Below, in pieces: positions 40,376 to 49,876 of a stretch of 59,034 nt of DNA. Numbering within the stretch: the first letter of the stretch is position 1; every line of letters starts with the position of its first letter. A program made the position numbers and the translations under genes. The notes under the pieces are model-generated. The model was given only the letters and a program-made list of their open reading frames with translations. It was not told the origin of the DNA and made no database searches. Source of the DNA: an uncultured Bacteroidota bacterium (GTDB lineage: Bacteria > Bacteroidota > Bacteroidia > Flavobacteriales_D > Sanyastnellaceae); the NCBI GenBank assembly GCA_903932685.1, contig CAIZGX010000030.1, positions 1-59,034 of the forward strand, in the 5' to 3' direction.

Positions 40376-40981
40376 ATGAATCACTTGGCCCACTTGTACC
40401 TTTCCTCTGACAAAGAAGAAGAAATGGTTGGACAGTTCATTGCAGATGGAGTGAAGGGGAACGATTTCAATTTATACAGTCCTGATATTCGTCAGGGAAT
40501 TCTTCTTCACAGATGGGTCGATTCATTCACGGATACGCATGATTTGGTAAAAGAGCTTCGTGCTGAATACAGACCAAAGCTGGGATTGTACAGTGGAGTG
40601 CTCATAGATTTGGTGTTCGATTATTTCTTAGCCAAAGATTTTCAAATTCATTCGGGAATAGAATTGGAAGAATTTCAGCAGTTCACTTTTTCAGTTTTGA
40701 ATAAACACGAAGATCATTTTCCGGAAAAAATGAAGAAGTATTTTTTTTACATGAAAGACAAAGAATTCATGATGAAATACGCTCAGACGGTTGAAATGGC
40801 GGACATCGTTCGTCAAATGGGAAAGCGCATTCCTCGCGGTGAATTGTTAATAGCAGCGGGAGATTTTTTTGAGGATTATGTGGAAATGGCGTCAGCATAT
40901 TTCCCCGCTTTCTTCGAAGAGTTGAAACGTGAATTTGAGTTGAAGCGTTTGGCGCTTCTGCATGAAAATAAAATTGATTAA
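40376..40981 (+). CDS. Acyl carrier protein phosphodiesterase-like protein
   Basis: A 201-residue protein of the AcpH family, which removes the 4'-phosphopantetheine arm from acyl carrier protein. The N-terminal MNHLAHLYLSS and the blocks GQFIADGVKG, GILLHRWVDSFTDTH and LIDLVFDYFLAKDF are the conserved HD-like set with the metal-binding His and Asp. Length is normal (about 190-200). It is divergent from glmM and followed 50 bp later by the transglycosylase gene. Confidence 0.85.
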   Translation: MNHLAHLYLSSDKEEEMVGQFIADGVKGNDFNLYSPDIRQGILLHRWVDSFTDTHDLVKELRAEYRPKLGLYSGVLIDLVFDYFLAKDFQIHSGIELEEFQQFTFSVLNKHEDHFPEKMKKYFFYMKDKEFMMKYAQTVEMADIVRQMGKRIPRGELLIAAGDFFEDYVEMASAYFPAFFEELKREFELKRLALLHENKID

Positions 40982-41031: not shown

Positions 41032-42492
41032 TTGAAGAAATCTGTTTGGCGTGTTATCCTAGTTTCTCTGGCTTTGCTTGGTGGCGTGGCTTTTATGTTT
41101 ACTCTTCTTTCTCCGAAGAAAAAGCAAACGGAATTTGAACAAGATCCAAATTTGCCCCTATTGGTGAACCTAGATTTAGACAGTATTCGCGCAAGAGGCA
41201 GACTAATTATTCTTACTGAAAACAGCTCGTCAACGTATTATCTCTATAAGGAAGAACCGAAGGGTTTCGATTACGAGTTGGCGAAACAGTTCGCGAAATA
41301 TTTAAAGGTTAAGTTGGAAGTTCGTGTGATTGAAAACCTCGACAGTATGTTCGCAATGCTTTATCGCGGTGAAGGCGATATCATTGCTTCAAACTTGACA
41401 GTGACCGAACAACGGAAGAGATTCTTGGCATTTTCTCCGCCGATTTATCAAACCAAACAAGTGCTTGTTCAGCGCAGAGATACATCGAATAAATTACTTG
41501 AAAACGGTATCGTTGTTCACGGAATAAATGAGTTAGATCGCTTGCCTATTCACGTGCATGCTTATTCTTCGTTTTATCGAAAGCTCGAGGAAATAACGAA
41601 GAATACAGGATTGAATCTTCAAGTGATTGAAGCAAGTGGGAAGGTGGGGACCGAAGAATTACTTCAGGAAGTAGCTAGCGGTGCGGTACCCTCAACTATA
41701 ACTGATAAGAGTTTGGCATTTTTAAGTTTCGAAGATTATCCGAATCTCGATATGTCTGTCGAATTAAGCGAAGACGAAGACATTGGCTGGGCTGTTCGAC
41801 CAAATGCGTACTTGCTGCAAGAGCGCTTGAATGCGTTTATGGCTGGAAAAAATGGAATTCGTTTTATTAATAAACTTTACCGTAGATATTTTGGTCGAGC
41901 TGAAGAAAATTGGTCGGGAGGTGTTCAACGATTCTTTTCCATGCCTCCTGTGCAGGCCGGAGCTCTCTCGCCATTCGATTCATTGTACAAAGCTCACGCG
42001 CCTATTGTTGGTTGGGATTGGAGATTACTCACTGCTCTGAGTTTTGTAGAGTCTGGATTTAATCCGAATGCAGAATCATGGGCGGGTGCGCGAGGACTCA
42101 TGCAACTGATGCCTGCGACTATTTTGAAGTACGACGGAGATACGCTTTGTCCACCTGATAATAACATTCAATCAGGTGCGAAGTACTTACACAACTTAGA
42201 TAATTTTTGGGCGCAAAGAGTACGTAACCCTGAAGAGCGAATAAAATTCATCTTGGCCAGTTACAATTGCGGGCCCGGTCATATTTTAGACGCCATGTGT
42301 ATTGCTAAACAAATCGGAAGGAACGATACGTTATGGGATGGACATGTTGCAGACGCATTAATGCTCAAAGCTCAACGACAGTATTACGCCATGTCGTGTG
42401 TGAAGCACGGTTATTTGAACGGAGTAGGACCGGTGAATTTTGTCAACAAGATTTTGGCCATTTTTGAGCATTATAAATTGTCGGCGAAATGA
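41032..42492 (+). CDS. MltF-like lytic transglycosylase
   Basis: 486 residues with a single N-terminal membrane segment (8-26). A solute-binding-protein-like (SBP_bac_3) domain follows (about 55-290: GRLIILTENSSSTYYLY to KLYRRYFG). The catalytic SLT domain is at about 320-460, with catalytic Glu340 in LTALSFVESGFNPNAES and the motif GARGLMQLMPAT. It cleaves peptidoglycan to 1,6-anhydromuramyl products at the periplasmic face. The only start in place is a TTG at 41032. Its stop overlaps the ATG of the following lipoprotein (ATGA), suggesting coupled synthesis. Confidence 0.9.
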   Translation: MKKSVWRVILVSLALLGGVAFMFTLLSPKKKQTEFEQDPNLPLLVNLDLDSIRARGRLIILTENSSSTYYLYKEEPKGFDYELAKQFAKYLKVKLEVRVIENLDSMFAMLYRGEGDIIASNLTVTEQRKRFLAFSPPIYQTKQVLVQRRDTSNKLLENGIVVHGINELDRLPIHVHAYSSFYRKLEEITKNTGLNLQVIEASGKVGTEELLQEVASGAVPSTITDKSLAFLSFEDYPNLDMSVELSEDEDIGWAVRPNAYLLQERLNAFMAGKNGIRFINKLYRRYFGRAEENWSGGVQRFFSMPPVQAGALSPFDSLYKAHAPIVGWDWRLLTALSFVESGFNPNAESWAGARGLMQLMPATILKYDGDTLCPPDNNIQSGAKYLHNLDNFWAQRVRNPEERIKFILASYNCGPGHILDAMCIAKQIGRNDTLWDGHVADALMLKAQRQYYAMSCVKHGYLNGVGPVNFVNKILAIFEHYKLSAK

Positions 42493-43121
42493 AGAACATT
42501 TGCTTAGCATTTCTCTTTTGTTTTGTTCTGTTTTCGTGCAGAGAAGAGTCTAATAATTTTAAAATCAGCGGTCGGACGAAGGACGCCTCTTCGGGATTAT
42601 CACTTCCGTATGTCAGTGTTTCAATAGAACAGAAGGCACTTGTAAACGGCATTCTAACCAATTACTTTATAGAAGCAGACGCAACACAATCCGATATCAA
42701 TGGAAATTATTCGTTGGAATGGAAGAAGGAAAACATTGTTGAGGCGAGGCTTGTGGTTTCAAGAGAATTTTATTACGGAAAGGAAATAACAGTTTCTCCT
42801 GATCAGCTTCGAAATGAAGGTGCAGTGGAAAAAGATATTGCGTTGTGGCCAGAGTCTAGTGTGAATGTGACGATAGTCAACGGGTCAGGTGCAAACGTGA
42901 TTCAATTCAATTGGGTCAATGCGAATTTCGAATGCGCCTGCTGTTCTAACGAGGTGAAGACATTCAATGCCTTATCGGATACAACTTTTCAATGTGCTGT
43001 ATATGGTGGGAAGTGGATCAAATACAATTGCGTTGCCAATGGAAGTTCAGGTTCCAGCTTTCTTCTTGACAGTTTGTACGCGATGCCTTTTCAGTCGAAT
43101 AATTTGTTCATTAACTTGTAG
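42489..43121 (+). CDS. Lipoprotein with carboxypeptidase-regulatory-like fold
   Basis: 210 residues with a lipobox (FCFVLFSC, Cys17). Residues 24-75 (KISGRTKDASSGLSLPYVSVSIEQK to NGNYSLEW) match the pattern of CarboxypepD_reg-like beta-sandwich domains. The remainder is a beta-rich region with a Cys cluster (FECACCSNEV) and two further Cys, possibly disulfides or a metal site. Function unknown. The 4-bp overlap with the transglycosylase gene suggests a role in envelope or cell-wall maintenance. Confidence 0.7.
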   Translation: MKNICLAFLFCFVLFSCREESNNFKISGRTKDASSGLSLPYVSVSIEQKALVNGILTNYFIEADATQSDINGNYSLEWKKENIVEARLVVSREFYYGKEITVSPDQLRNEGAVEKDIALWPESSVNVTIVNGSGANVIQFNWVNANFECACCSNEVKTFNALSDTTFQCAVYGGKWIKYNCVANGSSGSSFLLDSLYAMPFQSNNLFINL

Positions 43122-43167: not shown

Positions 43168-44952
43168 ATGAAAAAGTCAGTTTCAGTATTTGTATTTATT
43201 CTTCTATTTGGGTGGTCCGCGCAAAGCCAAGTCACTTTGCCGCGCAATCTAACACCGCAAGAAATTGAGCAAATTGCTCATGGTGATTTTTCAATTCTAA
43301 ACAGCGACAGAGGAATTGAATCTCCTCCCCCTTTCACAAACATTCGCGCCATGGCCGAATGGGAAGAGATTCAATGCTTGACAATTTCATGGATTTCTTA
43401 CCCATCCATTTTAAAACAAATTGTAGCCGCAGCGCGCACGCAAACACTTGTAATCATTCTTTCTGAAGATGTTGCAGCAACAGAGGCTTACCTATACGGA
43501 ACAGCAGGCGGACCAGCATTTACAGATTTGAACAACGTAATTATTCTACCTGCGAGTTATGATTCGGTCTGGATGCGAGATTACGGCGCGAACCCAGCCT
43601 ATTCCAATGAAGTGGAAGATTTGTTCTTGGTTGATTGGATTTACAATCGTCCGACAAGACCGAATGATGATGCCTCTCCGCAATACGTAGCGGATTATTT
43701 GGGTTTGGACTTGTATACCACGACTGCGGCACCAGACGACCTGGTGAACACAGGCGGAAACTGGATGAGCGATGGTTTCGGAACAGCCATTGTTACGGAA
43801 TTAATTCTTGAGGAAAACGCGGCTGGAAACCCATACGGAGTTACAGCAAAAACCGAAGCTGAAATAGACGCAATGACTTCTACCTATTTAGGAATTGACC
43901 GCTACATTAAAATGCCAACGCTTCCCTTCGATGGTATTCATCACGTGGACATGCACATGAAGTTAATCGACGAGCAAACCTTACTCGTGGGTGAATATCC
44001 AGCTAACATTGCAGATGGTCCGCAGATCAATGCAAACATGGACTATGTGGTTTCTAACTTCATGAACAAATGGGGTGAGCCGTACAAGACCGTTCGTATT
44101 CCTATGCCTCCTAGTGTGGCGGGAAATTGGCCAAGTTCGAATCCTCCATCTTCCTACAGAACATACACCAATGCAGTTTTCGTAAACAAGATGGTAATTC
44201 TGCCGATTTACCGCGAGCAATACGATACCACCGCGTTACGTATTTGGCAAGAGATGTTGCCTGGATATCAAATTGTAGGAATAGATTGCGATAACCAACC
44301 CGAGAACATTATTTCTGCGAGTGGCGCTATACACTGCATCACCCATAGTGTTGGTGTGGCAAACCCACTATTAATCAGTCACAACCCTCTTCCAGATACA
44401 GATAATACAACAACCGACTACAGTGTTGTGGCATACATGAATCACCGCGACGGCGTTGCTGCGGGAAGAATGTATTGGAAGACTTCACTAACAGGGGCAT
44501 ATACGCAAGTGAACATGGTAAATATTGGAAGTAACAACTGGGAAGGTTTCATCCCGGCTCAGCCTGCTGGAACGCGCGTGTATTATTATGTTGAAGGTGA
44601 AGCGTCTACAGGAAAAGTTTTACAACGTCCAATGGCTGCCCCAGATGGCTACTGGAGTTTCGATGTGTTTGCTGGAAATACGATAAACGAAGAGGCTTTT
44701 CAGTTTTCACGTCTTTATCCGAATCCTGCAAGCGAGATGACTTCTGTTGAATTCAGTGTGCGTGCTTCGCAAAGAGTGAATGCATACATCTTGGATGCGC
44801 AGGGACGAAGAGTTCAAGAAATTTATTCTGGGGTTTTATCTCCAGAGCAATCTAAGTTGTTCTTCGACGCATCATCATTAGCAGAAGGTATGTATTTCGT
44901 TCAGGTGATTGGTGAAAGAGGAGTATACAGAACCCCATTTGTAGTAAAATAA
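43168..44952 (+). CDS. Secreted peptidylarginine/agmatine deiminase-family protein with T9SS domain
   Basis: 594 residues. A signal peptide (1-20) precedes a deiminase domain (about 60-400) of the PAD_porph/agmatine deiminase family. The catalytic set seen in Porphyromonas peptidylarginine deiminase can be placed: Asp138 (WMRDYG), His259 and Asp261 (GIHHVDMH), Asn335 (RTYTNAVF) and Cys390 (GAIHCITHS). A beta domain and a T9SS type A signal follow (FQFSRLYPNPASEMTS to TPFVVK, about 515-594). Expected reaction: conversion of a guanidino group to a ureido group plus ammonia outside the cell. Whether the substrate is agmatine or arginine in proteins is open. It is directly followed by the glycosylasparaginase gene. 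Confidence 0.88.
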   Translation: MKKSVSVFVFILLFGWSAQSQVTLPRNLTPQEIEQIAHGDFSILNSDRGIESPPPFTNIRAMAEWEEIQCLTISWISYPSILKQIVAAARTQTLVIILSEDVAATEAYLYGTAGGPAFTDLNNVIILPASYDSVWMRDYGANPAYSNEVEDLFLVDWIYNRPTRPNDDASPQYVADYLGLDLYTTTAAPDDLVNTGGNWMSDGFGTAIVTELILEENAAGNPYGVTAKTEAEIDAMTSTYLGIDRYIKMPTLPFDGIHHVDMHMKLIDEQTLLVGEYPANIADGPQINANMDYVVSNFMNKWGEPYKTVRIPMPPSVAGNWPSSNPPSSYRTYTNAVFVNKMVILPIYREQYDTTALRIWQEMLPGYQIVGIDCDNQPENIISASGAIHCITHSVGVANPLLISHNPLPDTDNTTTDYSVVAYMNHRDGVAAGRMYWKTSLTGAYTQVNMVNIGSNNWEGFIPAQPAGTRVYYYVEGEASTGKVLQRPMAAPDGYWSFDVFAGNTINEEAFQFSRLYPNPASEMTSVEFSVRASQRVNAYILDAQGRRVQEIYSGVLSPEQSKLFFDASSLAEGMYFVQVIGERGVYRTPFVVK

Positions 44953-45948
44953 ATGTCGAATAACAGAAGGAAATTTTTAGGTCAGTTAGTTGCAACAGGA
45001 GCTCTATTAGGAATGTCTCCAGCTCTTTTTTCATTCAGTGAAAAAAAGAAAAAGCCAGCAGAAAAGGTTCGCTATACCAAGGGATTGGTGCTGTCAACTT
45101 GGGATCATGGTATTGCTGCGAACGATGCTGCAATGGATGCACTAAAGAAAGGTGGAAATGCCTTGGATATGGCAGAGAAAGGGGTGTGGCAAACAGAGTC
45201 TGATTTAACTAACCTAAGTGTTGGACTAGGCGGATTTCCTGATAGGGAAGGAAGAACGACATTAGATGCCTGCATCATGGATTGGCAGCACAAGGTGGGG
45301 TCAGTAGCTTTTGTTCAGGGATTCGAACATCCGATTTCAATTGCGCGTGCTGTTTTGGAAAAGACACCGCATGCCATGATTGTTGGAAAGGGAGCTGAGC
45401 AATTTGCATTGGAGCAAGGATTCAAGCATAGCGATTATGTAAATCCGGAAGCGCAAAAAGCATGGAAAGAATGGTTGAAGACTTCCGAGTACAAACCAAT
45501 CATCAATATTGAAAATCACGATACCATTGGCCTGTTGGCGATGGATTATGAAGGAAGAATTTCGGGTGCTTGCACTACAAGCGGTTTGTCATTCAAGTTG
45601 CATGGAAGAGTGGGCGACAGTCCGATTATAGGTGCTGGATTGTACATCGATAATGAAGTGGGTGGAGCCACCTGCACGGGTCTTGGTGAAACCGTTATCC
45701 GTTCATGTACTTCTTTCTTGGTTGTTGAACTCATGCGTCAAGGCGCAAGCGCGCAGGAAGCATGTGAGGAAGCAATAGCGCGATTGAAATCGAACAACGC
45801 GTTTATGGTTGACGAGTATCAAGTTGGTGTGTTAGCTGTTGATAAGGCAGGTGATATCGGAGGGCACGGATTGCGGAGTGGATTTACTTATGCGTTGTGC
45901 AAAGACGGTAAGAATGAAATGTACACCGCAGGATCGCTTATTCGCTAG
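44953..45948 (+). CDS. N4-(beta-N-acetylglucosaminyl)-L-asparaginase
   Basis: A 331-residue Ntn-hydrolase. The precursor is expected to self-cleave between Asp190 and Thr191 (NHDTIGLLAMD), making Thr191 the nucleophile, and the GHG-like loops LHGRVGDSPIIGAGLYID and GGATCTGLGE bind substrate. It hydrolyses the GlcNAc-Asn bond of N-glycopeptides. The N-terminus NRRKFLGQLVATGALLG is a Tat-type signal, so it is exported folded. The ATG immediately follows the deiminase stop, so the two are in one operon. Its stop overlaps the convergent holA stop. Confidence 0.92.
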   Translation: MSNNRRKFLGQLVATGALLGMSPALFSFSEKKKKPAEKVRYTKGLVLSTWDHGIAANDAAMDALKKGGNALDMAEKGVWQTESDLTNLSVGLGGFPDREGRTTLDACIMDWQHKVGSVAFVQGFEHPISIARAVLEKTPHAMIVGKGAEQFALEQGFKHSDYVNPEAQKAWKEWLKTSEYKPIINIENHDTIGLLAMDYEGRISGACTTSGLSFKLHGRVGDSPIIGAGLYIDNEVGGATCTGLGETVIRSCTSFLVVELMRQGASAQEACEEAIARLKSNNAFMVDEYQVGVLAVDKAGDIGGHGLRSGFTYALCKDGKNEMYTAGSLIR

Positions 45949-47039: not shown

Positions 47040-47489
47040 ATGCTTGATTTCCAATTCCCCTCTTATTCGTTCCGCATTCGCGGTGAATCCACGCGTGAAG
47101 TGTGGGATATTGTTCGTAACAAATGGGTAGCGCTCACTCCTGAAGAATTTGTTCGTCAGCATGCCATTCATTTTTTTATTCACGATTTGAATTTCCCGAA
47201 TGGAAGAATAGGCGTTGAGACCGAAGTTGTTTTTCATGGAATGAAACGCAGAGCCGATTTAGTCTTGTATACGCGAGAAGCATTTCCGTTACTCATTGCT
47301 GAGTTCAAAGCTCCTACAGTGAAAATTGAAGAGGCTGTTTTAAGTCAAACCTTGCGTTACAATTCTGTTTTGAAGGCGCCTTGGTTATTGATATCCAATG
47401 GACACGAACATGCGTTGTGCGAGGTGAATAGCGATACGGGAACTGGCAAGTGGCATGCCGAAGCAGCCGAATGGAAGTTCATTCAATAA
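47040..47489 (+). CDS. HsdR N-terminal-domain (PD-(D/E)xK-like) protein
   Basis: A 149-residue stand-alone protein that resembles only the N-terminal nuclease domain of type I restriction HsdR subunits. The PD-(D/E)xK core is visible: RIGVETEVVFHG, RRADLVLYTREAFPLLIAEFKAP (Asp73, Glu88, Lys90), then EEAVLSQTLRYNSVLKAPWLLISNG. There is no helicase part and no hsdM/hsdS nearby, so it is not a restriction system. Small proteins like this are widespread in Bacteroidota next to holA; the role is unknown, and a DNA repair or replication nuclease is a guess. Confidence 0.8.
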   Translation: MLDFQFPSYSFRIRGESTREVWDIVRNKWVALTPEEFVRQHAIHFFIHDLNFPNGRIGVETEVVFHGMKRRADLVLYTREAFPLLIAEFKAPTVKIEEAVLSQTLRYNSVLKAPWLLISNGHEHALCEVNSDTGTGKWHAEAAEWKFIQ

Positions 47490-47492
47490 AGA

Positions 47493-48227
47493 TTATTTCT
47501 TTTTTCTATTTGCTCCGGGAAGATTAACGGTGAAGTAAATGCTCCAATTTCCGTAGTCTTCATTTGCGTATTTTCCACCTGAAAATAGTTCGTTAGGAAA
47601 ATACCGCACCCCTAAGGCCAAGGTGCTGAAACTAATTTTGAGTGAAGATGCGTATTGCAAAGCATTGAATACTCTTGGATTTTTTTCAATGCGTTTCAAT
47701 TTAACATCGTCAATTTTCTTCACTCCCAGAAATCGTGCATTCGAAAAGTAATAACCCTCTAAGGCCCATTCGAAGTAGCAGTTGGCCTGACTGCCGTGCT
47801 TAAGAAGATAACGACGTAATCGAATTTGCGCATTGAATGCATTAGAACTGAATTTCGCTCGATTCCAGGTGCTGTCGGGCTCGAAAGAATGAATAGGGTA
47901 GTATGAATTCAAGCGTTGTGTTCTTCTGTAATAACCAACACCAAAGACAACTGAAGACATATCAGCAAGGTCTTTTTTGAAGGTATATCCGCAGGAAAAG
48001 CTTCTGCCCAATTCAAGCTTTTCCTTTTTTGACAGGTGTTTGTTGTTGGGAATGAAATTTCCAATTTCGTAATAGAAAGAGGAGTAATTGTCAATGTTAA
48101 CGCCTTCCAACCGATAGTCTCGAGTTCTCTTCATGACAGAATCGATAGTCGATTCAAACAGAATTGTTTGTCCTGTCGCGTGAATTGTTATTCCAAGAGC
48201 TAAGAGAAAAAGCAACGCGTACCTCAT
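47493..48227 (-). CDS. Exported protein of unknown function, barrel-like
   Basis: 244 residues with a signal peptide (ending IHATGQ). The mature part has alternating strands rich in Tyr, Phe and Arg (YYEIGNFIP, SSVVFGVGYYRRTQRLN, NAQIRLRRYLLKH, CYFEWALEGYYFS, GNWSIYFTVNL), as in small outer membrane barrels. No family is recognised. Its ATG overlaps the subtilisin stop by 4 bp, so the two are co-translated and may work together at the cell surface. Confidence 0.65.
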   Translation of the reverse strand: MRYALLFLLALGITIHATGQTILFESTIDSVMKRTRDYRLEGVNIDNYSSFYYEIGNFIPNNKHLSKKEKLELGRSFSCGYTFKKDLADMSSVVFGVGYYRRTQRLNSYYPIHSFEPDSTWNRAKFSSNAFNAQIRLRRYLLKHGSQANCYFEWALEGYYFSNARFLGVKKIDDVKLKRIEKNPRVFNALQYASSLKISFSTLALGVRYFPNELFSGGKYANEDYGNWSIYFTVNLPGANRKKK

Positions 48228-49876
48228 GGTTGTGGAATAGGTATTTCGAAGAAGTGACGATCGTAGACCACACGAAGTTTACACCCTTTGAATTCCTCAG
48301 CGGGAATCGATGCTATCACTTTGTTTTGCGGACGAGAAACGTTGTACTTAAATACTTCTCCTGTTGCTTTTATGAATTGAATGAACGCTACCGGAGAAGA
48401 ATAGTTTTCTTCGATTTCTATAGTGTCTCTTCGGCTGATGGTTAAAACGTTATTGCAGCTCAAGCTGTCAATGGAGAACTGAACCGAATAAACATTCGGT
48501 TTTTCTTCTTCTCCGAAAAAGAAATAACTCGCTTTTGGAATGCCGAATCCGTGGGCGTAATCGAAAAACGGATATAGAGATCCGCTCTTGCGCATTTCTT
48601 CCCACAATTTTTCAGTGGTCCAATCTGGATGAAGTTGACGCACACATGCTGCAAATCCGCATACCAAAGGTGTTGCAAACGAAGTTCCTTGAATGCTCTT
48701 GTAGTTATCGTCACCATCATCTTCCGGATAGAGTAATTCTCCGGGCGCGCAGACGTCGGGCTTTAATCTTCCGTCTGAAGTTGGACCAATTGAACTGAAG
48801 CTTGAAATGTATCCTGTAGTTGGATTAACAGATCCAACGGTAAGGATTCGTTCGGCATCTGCCGGAGCGCCAATAATTTCCCAACTGTTTTGAAGTTCAT
48901 TTCCAGCAGCATTCACGACTAAAATCCCTTTGTCCATAGCAGTGTTGGCTGCAATACTAATCTTGCAAGTCCTTCCATTTAAATCTCTTCGTTCGTATAG
49001 TTGATTGGTAAAACTTAGGGAAGAGTTGACCAAACTCGCACCTTTCTCATCAGCCCATTCCAAGGCTTGAATCCATTGAACGTCATTCAGAAAACGAAAG
49101 AATCCCATGTTGGGTGTTACTCGCGCTAGGAGGTATGTTGCTTCGGTAGCCAATCCGAATTGAACAGAGTCGTTCTTTCCTGCTAAAAATGTTAGTACTT
49201 CAGTTCCGTGAATAGAATTAGAATAGACACCTTCTGTTTTCTTTAAAAAGTCTTTGGTCTCAATGATTTGATTGTTCTTGAATAAATGCGAGAGCTGTTC
49301 TACGTCATCTGCATCAGTGAATCCCGCATCGAATAAAGCGATAACGGTGTTCTTTCCGAATAACTCGCGCTCGCTAAATTGAGTTGGTTCAAGCAAATCG
49401 AGTTGAGTCTTAGCTTCCTTTACTTGATAGTCGAAATTTTCTGAAGGCAGATAGTTTGTAGTTGGAAATTCAGCGGCGATTATCGATTGCTCTTGAAGGA
49501 ATTCGACTTCAAGAACGAAAGGAAGATTGGCTATTCTTTTCCAATTCATTTCAGAGGCTTGAACTACCGCTGCGTTTAACCAACGACTTGTTCCGAAGGT
49601 GCTGTCTGAATAGGCTTCAACCAGGGAAATGTATTCTTCGTAAACAGGAACATCCCTTTCGTCCCAGGCAATATTCTGCATAAACCTTCTTTCAATTGCA
49701 GCCGCTGAGAAATTATTTTGAAAGGAATTGTCGTGAATTCCTTTGTCTTTGAAAACGACATATCCCCATTGTTGCGCGGAGGCAATGTTTGTTAGACCAA
49801 TGGAAAATGAAAGCAACAGAAAAAAGAGAATAGCGCTATTCCGTGTATTTTTGTTCGGATTTAAAAATGAATACAT
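48224..49876 (-). CDS. Secreted S8 (subtilisin-like) serine protease
   Basis: 550 residues with a signal peptide ending IASAQ (about 35). A prodomain-like region (36-150) precedes the S8 catalytic domain. The triad is Asp183 (VIALFDAGF), His223 (NSIHGTEVL) and Ser399 ([12 protein letters not shown]), with the oxyanion Asn326 in VNAAGNE. The C-terminal 100 residues are beta-rich; no T9SS signal is visible, so it may stay periplasmic or be exported by signal peptide only. The only ATG (49876) overlaps the 5' end of the divergent threonine aldolase gene by about 10 bp. Confidence 0.9.
49846..49853 (+). promoter_or_regulatory. Candidate -7 element of the threonine aldolase gene
   Basis: TATTTTTG (8/8 to TAnnTTTG), 13 bp before the ATG at 49867. 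It lies inside the N-terminal codons of the divergent subtilisin gene. Confidence 0.45.

What the first reader, a model, noticed from the sequence alone, without database searches (positions are those of the whole stretch)
43168..45948. Operon of a T9SS-secreted deiminase and a Tat-exported glycosylasparaginase
The two genes abut with no spacer. One protein should convert guanidino groups extracellularly and the other should remove GlcNAc-linked glycans from Asn. Together they suggest processing of external glycoproteins or peptides, or modification of the cell's own surface proteins.
Basis: inference. Interest (0 to 1): 0.55.

Follow-up and report, generated by a model that had tools for sequence, protein, structure and literature searches.

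The report
Secreted arginine deiminase in conserved operon
The gene pair is real: one gene encodes a probably secreted enzyme of the kind that in a gum pathogen turns arginine into citrulline, the other an enzyme that cuts a sugar off asparagine, but in related bacteria the first gene keeps company with a cell-wall enzyme far more often than with its present neighbour.

Summary
Observation confirmed: 43168-44952 encodes a PAD_porph deiminase with a T9SS tail, 44953-45948 a glycosylasparaginase (AGA) with a twin-arginine signal; they abut exactly. The deiminase is PPAD-type, not agmatine deiminase: the best solved relative is P. gingivalis PPAD, and the two arginines that bind a terminal carboxylate (R152, R154) are kept in all 82 correctly read homologues, while entrance residue Y233 is replaced, mostly by Gly. 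The pair is conserved, but only in the window's family (20 of 64 relatives holding both; 12 abutting, 8 with an OlsF-like gene between); outside it no co-occurrence was seen. The stronger partner is upstream: an MltF-type lytic transglycosylase lies within 6 kb of the deiminase in 39 of 42 relatives holding both, in three families; in the window's family a small beta-rich lipoprotein lies between. AGA should split only released GlcNAc-Asn in the periplasm, so joint glycoprotein processing is not supported. Best reading: extracellular deimination of C-terminal or free arginine for peptide and nitrogen use, with AGA a loosely related addition. PPAD-type enzymes are common in the sampled class, although one review calls PPAD confined to P. 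gingivalis.

The parts
41032..42492 (+). MltF-type membrane-bound lytic transglycosylase (SBP_bac_3 + SLT domains), first gene of the conserved unit
   Evidence: Pfam; PDB MltF 4owd 1.9e-40; NCBIfam MltF 282 bits, below its cut-off 354; within 6 kb of the deiminase in 39 of 42 relatives holding both
42489..43121 (+). Small lipoprotein (lipobox Cys17), two beta domains, invariant CxC and a further Cys; overlaps the MltF gene by 4 nt
   Evidence: AlphaFold2 model pLDDT 88; near the deiminase in 38 of 80 loci, not detected in 20 MltF loci without deiminase (one cut at a contig end)
43168..44952 (+). PPAD-type secreted arginine deiminase, 594 aa
43351..44349 (+). Deiminase catalytic domain (residues 62-394, PAD_porph)
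43579..43581 (+). D138 = PPAD catalytic D130
   Evidence: alignment; 82 of 82 correctly read rows
43648..43659 (+). R161 and R164 = PPAD R152 and R154, which bind the substrate carboxylate
   Evidence: 82 of 82 correctly read rows; role from PMC4893104 passages
43933..43950 (+). G256 (PPAD Y233 position), H259 = H236, D261 = D238
44335..44337 (+). C390 = PPAD nucleophile C351
44713..44949 (+). T9SS type A C-terminal sorting domain (residues 516-594)
   Evidence: PF18962, TIGR04183, own-genome scan
44953..45948 (+). Glycosylasparaginase (AGA), 331 aa, abutting the deiminase stop
   Evidence: PDB 3ljq 2.5e-104; Pfam
44965..44970 (+). Twin arginine R5-R6 of the Tat-type signal (RRKFL)
   Evidence: 13 of 13 full-length rows; TatC in genome
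45520..45525 (+). D190-T191 autoproteolysis site, nucleophile Thr (HDTIG)
   Evidence: matches Asp-151/Thr-152 of EmAGA (PMC13204146 passages)
40376..40981 (+). ACP phosphodiesterase-like gene, frequent upstream neighbour, probably outside the functional unit
   Evidence: Pfam; near the deiminase in 23 of 80 loci

Best explanation
The pair is the 3' end of a likely four-gene operon (MltF-type lytic transglycosylase, exported lipoprotein, PPAD-type deiminase, AGA). Shown: gene content, order, sorting tail, twin-arginine signal, all catalytic residues and the two carboxylate-binding arginines. Inferred: the deiminase crosses the outer membrane by T9SS, loses its tail, and outside the cell converts arginines with a free carboxylate (C-terminal peptidyl-arginine, perhaps free arginine) to citrulline and ammonia. 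The lipoprotein, found with the deiminase and not with MltF alone, is its probable surface partner. AGA matures by self-cleavage at D190|T191, is exported by Tat, and splits imported GlcNAc-Asn in the periplasm. The two enzymes serve neighbouring steps of peptide and nitrogen scavenging, not one substrate; their exact abutment arose when an OlsF-like gene between them was lost.
For: PPAD chains 5.5e-33 against 3e-19 or weaker for other PAD_porph structures; agmatine deiminase model TIGR03380 57.5 bits against cut-off 381.8; Foldseek of the model: PPAD 8e-25, the next family member 1.5e-15, agmatine deiminases 1e-11. D130, R152, R154, H236, D238, N297, C351 positions kept in 82 of 82 correctly read rows; the 83rd row (L152) was read in a wrong frame by my script, and in its right frame shows the YNRPRP, HID, WMRDY and HC motifs. 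Control in 20 class-wide loci: 15 keep both arginines; four proteins of family f23 and one canonical PAD_porph protein, which I take for AguA-type, lack R152. Deiminase-MltF within 6 kb 39 of 42, deiminase-AGA 20 of 64. Lipoprotein near deiminase 38 of 80 loci, not detected in 20 MltF loci without deiminase. Tree: the 12 directly abutting rows form one clade (89/82) with the OlsF-bearing rows outside it. Intervening gene: PF19576 plus GNAT, NCBIfam OlsF 437 bits, below its cut-off 620.
Against: PPAD Y233, part of the steric block credited with C-terminal specificity, is Gly here (Gly in 61 of 82 rows, never Tyr), so specificity may be wider. No gingipain-R as source of C-terminal arginines: one C25 peptidase only, in a 1293-aa frame, which I take for PorU without test. 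In 149 class-wide genomes MltF and deiminase each often occur alone; 11 hold both, 7 linked on one strand. Among the relatives one of the three unlinked cases (G063) is not explained by contig ends or a paralogue. The lipoprotein was not detected at many distant deiminase loci (42 of 80). Deiminase model only moderate (pLDDT 64). Nothing shows co-transcription or export.
Confidence: 0.55

Rival explanations
1. The deiminase and AGA act together on external or own glycoproteins.
For: Abutting genes, linked in 20 of 64 relatives holding both; both carry export signals.
Against: Different compartments by signal type; AGA needs released GlcNAc-Asn (recalled); no GH18 found; no association outside the family; deiminase lost but AGA kept at the locus in G011.
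Confidence: 0.1
2. Self-modification: the deiminase citrullinates arginines of the cell's own surface and secreted proteins, with MltF and the lipoprotein serving envelope remodelling around it.
For: Tight link to an envelope enzyme and a lipoprotein; loss of PPAD in P. gingivalis reduces vesicle production and surface translocation (PMC7847538 abstract and passages).
Against: No substrate identified; MltF's amino-acid-site residues do not differ between linked and unlinked copies.
Confidence: 0.2
3. Neighbourhood by inheritance: the genes share a region without functional relation, as slowly changing gene order within one order of bacteria.
For: Enzymes of different compartments; AGA link confined to one family; ACP phosphodiesterase also near in 23 of 80 loci.
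Against: Core order persists while both flanks change; MltF link spans three families at down to 36% MltF identity.
Confidence: 0.25

Closest known systems
Porphyromonas gingivalis peptidylarginine deiminase (PPAD)
   Same: PAD_porph domain, Ig-like part in the aligned range, T9SS tail, catalytic D/H/D/N/C, carboxylate-binding R152 and R154
   Different: 22-23% identity in the Foldseek alignment, Y233 replaced by Gly, a one-residue insert between the two arginines in the window (in 14 of 82 rows), operon with MltF and lipoprotein, no gingipain-R found
Elizabethkingia (Flavobacterium) meningoseptica glycosylasparaginase
   Same: 56% identity to the mature enzyme, same self-cleavage site; also 331 aa with a signal peptide (PMC13204146 passages)
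   Different: The Phe two residues after the active-site Trp is His in the three window-genus rows aligned; genomic setting
MltF lytic transglycosylase of Pseudomonas aeruginosa
   Same: N-terminal SBP-like regulatory domain plus SLT catalytic domain (PMC10746161 passages)
   Different: Below NCBIfam's MltF cut-off (282 of 354 bits); sits in a deiminase operon
OlsF bifunctional ornithine lipid synthase
   Same: PF19576 plus GNAT domain in the relatives' intervening gene, as described for OlsF (PMC11631085 passages)
   Different: Below the OlsF cut-off; absent from this locus in the window; a 46% identical homologue lies on another contig, match reported with one TAG inside

Membership tests
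PPAD (Porphyromonas-type peptidylarginine deiminase) | Catalytic D130, H236, D238, N297, C351 | tested here: met
PPAD (Porphyromonas-type peptidylarginine deiminase) | R152 and R154 for the C-terminal carboxylate | tested here: met
   82 of 82 correctly read rows; 15 of 20 class-wide, the misses being other subgroups
PPAD (Porphyromonas-type peptidylarginine deiminase) | Y233 at the pocket entrance | tested here: not met
   Gly in the window; Tyr in 0 of 82 rows. One class-wide protein, L192, has Tyr and is a close PPAD relative (8.9e-114). The window protein is therefore filed as PPAD-type, not as PPAD itself
PPAD (Porphyromonas-type peptidylarginine deiminase) | T9SS sorting domain | tested here: met
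PPAD (Porphyromonas-type peptidylarginine deiminase) | Activity on C-terminal arginine peptides | not testable with these tools
   needs enzyme assay
Agmatine deiminase (AguA) | Score above the curated agmatine deiminase cut-off | tested here: not met
   57.5 bits against 381.8
Glycosylasparaginase | HD|T self-cleavage site and nucleophile Thr | tested here: met
Glycosylasparaginase | Closest to solved glycosylasparaginases rather than isoaspartyl peptidases | tested here: met
   2.5e-104 against 4.6e-36; beta-aspartyl-peptidase model 127.5 bits of 567
Glycosylasparaginase | Hydrolysis of GlcNAc-Asn | not testable with these tools
   needs assay
Tat substrate | Twin-arginine motif and a TatC in the genome | tested here: met
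   actual export not tested
MltF | Score above NCBIfam's MltF cut-off | tested here: not met
   282.4 of 354 bits; the ten other copies scanned also fall below, hence 'MltF-type'
Operon | Co-transcription | not testable with these tools
   only gene spacing: 4-nt overlap, 46 nt, 0 nt

The most novel reading that the evidence does not exclude
PPAD is not a private invention of oral Porphyromonas but one offshoot of an old environmental module in which a T9SS-secreted deiminase with an opened pocket entrance works with a dedicated surface lipoprotein and an MltF-type cell-wall enzyme to deiminate arginines at the cell surface, possibly including internal arginines and the cell's own surface proteins.
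Probability: 0.2. Interest if true: 0.65.

Novelty: new variant of a known kind. Interest (0 to 1): 0.42.

Why it matters
PPAD is discussed as a source of citrullination in rheumatoid arthritis (PMC4893104 passages), and one review states it is found solely in P. gingivalis (PMC9559808, passage); I recall, without a call, that homologues in other Porphyromonas species are already published, so that statement is dated. Here 54 of 149 genomes sampled from the window's class match at E<=1e-20 (48 of them at 49% identity or more), and 15 of 20 loci fetched from that sample keep both specificity arginines. A set of environmental enzymes makes the ancestral role of bacterial citrullination, and the effect of the Y233 change on end-specificity, directly testable.

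Tried and rejected
Arginine-sensing MltF: the amino-acid-binding Arg and Asp positions of its SBP domain (roles recalled) are kept in linked (36 and 34 of 47, window included) and unlinked copies (15 and 15 of 19) alike, and the Lys/Arg/Orn SBP model gives similar weak scores in linked and unlinked copies (five of each given; it is missing from the list of one linked copy); dropped. The distant linked copies at about 28-31% identity lack the Arg.

Co-occurrence as support for the pair: in the window's family 51/4/3/3 (p=0.017, not corrected for kinship or incomplete genomes), outside it 13/8/11/7 (p=1), all 100 together 64/12/14/10 (p=0.012); not taken as support.

Losses: I first read G003 as lacking the pair; its contig ends inside the MltF gene (L187), so this is probably an assembly gap. 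Of the three relatives with deiminase and MltF but no link, G007 has its deiminase at a contig start, G041's deiminase hit is a longer paralogue, and G063 is a real exception. Foldseek of the lipoprotein gave only weak beta-sandwich matches (best 1.2e-05). Promoter and terminator scans stay near the shuffles (15 against 13.2, sd 3.9; 10 against 6.5, sd 2.7).

Rows dropped or faulty: one search used deiminase places that I picked (about 290 bits or more, plus one contig-cut tail in G046; weaker second copies, AguA-like and tail-only hits left out), AGA places at E<1e-80 and MltF places at E<=1e-15. L027 (G024, one stop inside) was left out of the trees. In one search one of 83 rows (L152) was read in a wrong frame; found and corrected. 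Counts are lower bounds: tblastn misses distant copies, and 64 of 80 loci have 3.5 kb upstream, 59 have 3.5 kb downstream (AGA in 11 of those 59).

Full report
Observation. The deiminase has PAD_porph and a T9SS sorting domain; the second protein is an Asparaginase_2 enzyme. The genome (2.37 Mb, 84 contigs, 96% complete) has 84 sorting-tail matches, 83 over the cut-off, and a TatC.

The deiminase. Against solved structures the best hits are PPAD chains (5.5e-33), ahead of other PAD_porph proteins (3e-19 or weaker); it is far below the agmatine deiminase cut-offs. The PPAD paper names D130, H236, D238, N297 and C351 as catalytic and R152, R154 as the residues that bind the terminal carboxylate (PMC4893104, passages). 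One search aligned 83 deiminases: the window and 82 from 80 named-genome loci. One row (L152) was read in a wrong frame by my script; the other 82 keep all seven residues, and L152 in its right frame shows the same motifs. Y233, which that paper and a review describe as part of the block at the pocket entrance, is Tyr in none of the 82; it is Gly in 61. Of 20 loci fetched from class-wide genomes, 15 keep both arginines; four proteins of one family (f23) and one canonical PAD_porph protein lack R152; one of the 15 (L192) keeps Tyr and is a close PPAD relative (8.9e-114). So the residues separate subgroups and are not kept by default. An AlphaFold2 model (pLDDT 64, ten sequences) matches PPAD first.

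The glycosylasparaginase. The best solved relatives are the Flavobacterium/Elizabethkingia enzymes (2.5e-104). The self-cleavage site HDT is kept, and so are, by numbering that I recall, the residues that hold the substrate's amino and carboxyl groups. The twin-arginine motif is in 13 of 13 full-length rows. That the family needs GlcNAc-Asn with free amino and carboxyl groups is recalled knowledge; a 2026 paper reports Asn-GlcNAc and L-Asn as substrates of the Elizabethkingia enzyme (PMC13204146, passages). No GH18 match in the genome; the PNGase F search was silent in its controls too.

Gene order. Twenty neighbourhoods of relatives and the window, all from the window's family, show a core MltF - lipoprotein - deiminase - [OlsF-like] - AGA with changing flanks; the lipoprotein is in 19 of the 21, the other two (L072, L078) being contigs that begin at the deiminase; in L083, L084 and L085 the AGA is not in the stretch. 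In 100 genomes (window included) the deiminase is in 76, AGA in 78, MltF in 53 by the lists I used. Deiminase and AGA lie within 6 kb in 20 of 64 genomes with both, all in the window's family: 12 abut, 8 have the intervening gene. Deiminase and MltF lie within 6 kb in 39 of 42 with both: 32 of 34 in the window's family, 5 of 6 and 2 of 2 in two others. In 149 class-wide genomes 54 have the deiminase (E<=1e-20) and 40 MltF (E<=1e-12); by my reading of the listed places 11 have both, 7 of them linked on one strand and one (G121) about 3 kb apart on opposite strands. Among the 80 named loci MltF is near in 32, the lipoprotein in 38, AGA in 16, OlsF in 8. In the 20 class-wide loci neither AGA nor the lipoprotein was detected, and MltF in two. 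In G011 the deiminase is absent while MltF, lipoprotein and AGA remain.

History. In a tree of 32 deiminases the 12 abutting rows form one clade (89/82), and AGA linkage as a whole needs three changes against 7.9 in shuffles (the shuffles ask only for clustering, and near copies help it). This fits an old linkage with an OlsF-like gene between, lost in the ancestor of two genera, and loss of linkage elsewhere. The window genome keeps an OlsF-like homologue on another contig (46%, one TAG reported inside the match).

The lipoprotein. 210 aa, lipobox cysteine at 17 and cysteines 149, 151 and 169 invariant in 14 rows, two beta domains in a good model (pLDDT 88), no clear known relative. It occurs by the deiminase with or without MltF and was not detected in 20 MltF loci without deiminase, one of them cut at a contig end. 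As it diverges fast (25-31% identity to the window's copy outside the genus), absence by tblastn is weak evidence.

Mechanism. Shown: anatomy, conservation, order. Inferred: extracellular conversion of arginine with a free carboxylate to citrulline, and periplasmic splitting of GlcNAc-Asn. P. gingivalis PPAD works on C-terminal arginines laid bare by gingipain R (PMC4893104 passages); here one C25 peptidase was found, so other secreted proteases would have to supply them. Y233 to Gly may widen the specificity.

Literature. My ten searches (open-access library only), judged by their listings and the passages I opened, showed no paper that describes this gene cluster or PPAD-type enzymes in environmental Flavobacteriales; subscription papers are not held, so this is no proof of novelty. 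One review calls PPAD found solely in P. gingivalis (PMC9559808, passage); PPAD in other Porphyromonas species is known to me from recall.

Verdict. Observation confirmed, interpretation partly supported, interest moderate.

Noticed in passing
43168-44952 and 80 named loci: PPAD Y233 is replaced by Gly or other residues while R152/R154 stay invariant: a natural test set for end-specificity.
   Followed up: partly
42489-43121: Uncharacterised two-domain beta lipoprotein that accompanies the deiminase gene; the residues after the lipobox Cys (REE/KEE) resemble surface-export signals of Bacteroidota lipoproteins as I recall them.
   Followed up: partly
L070:8438-10195 and seven other relatives' loci: OlsF-like aminolipid synthase between deiminase and AGA in four genera.
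   Followed up: yes
G020:C1:2320069-2321514; also G039, G049, G014, G033, G061: Second deiminase copy in a longer frame of about 900-1020 aa, 55-60% identical up to residue 501, then different.
   Followed up: no
   Followed up: partly
L188-L191 (family f23): Deiminase subgroup of about 620-635 aa with all catalytic residues but without R152; substrate unknown.
   Followed up: no
47040-47489: HSDR_N_2 (type I restriction R N-terminal domain) protein of 149 aa standing alone, kept beside the locus in the genus neighbourhoods examined.
   Followed up: no
48224-49876: Subtilase (Peptidase_S8) gene near the operon, a possible secreted protease.
   Followed up: no
L187 (G003:C27): Contig ends inside the MltF gene, so the apparent lack of the pair in this genome is probably an assembly gap.
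   Followed up: yes
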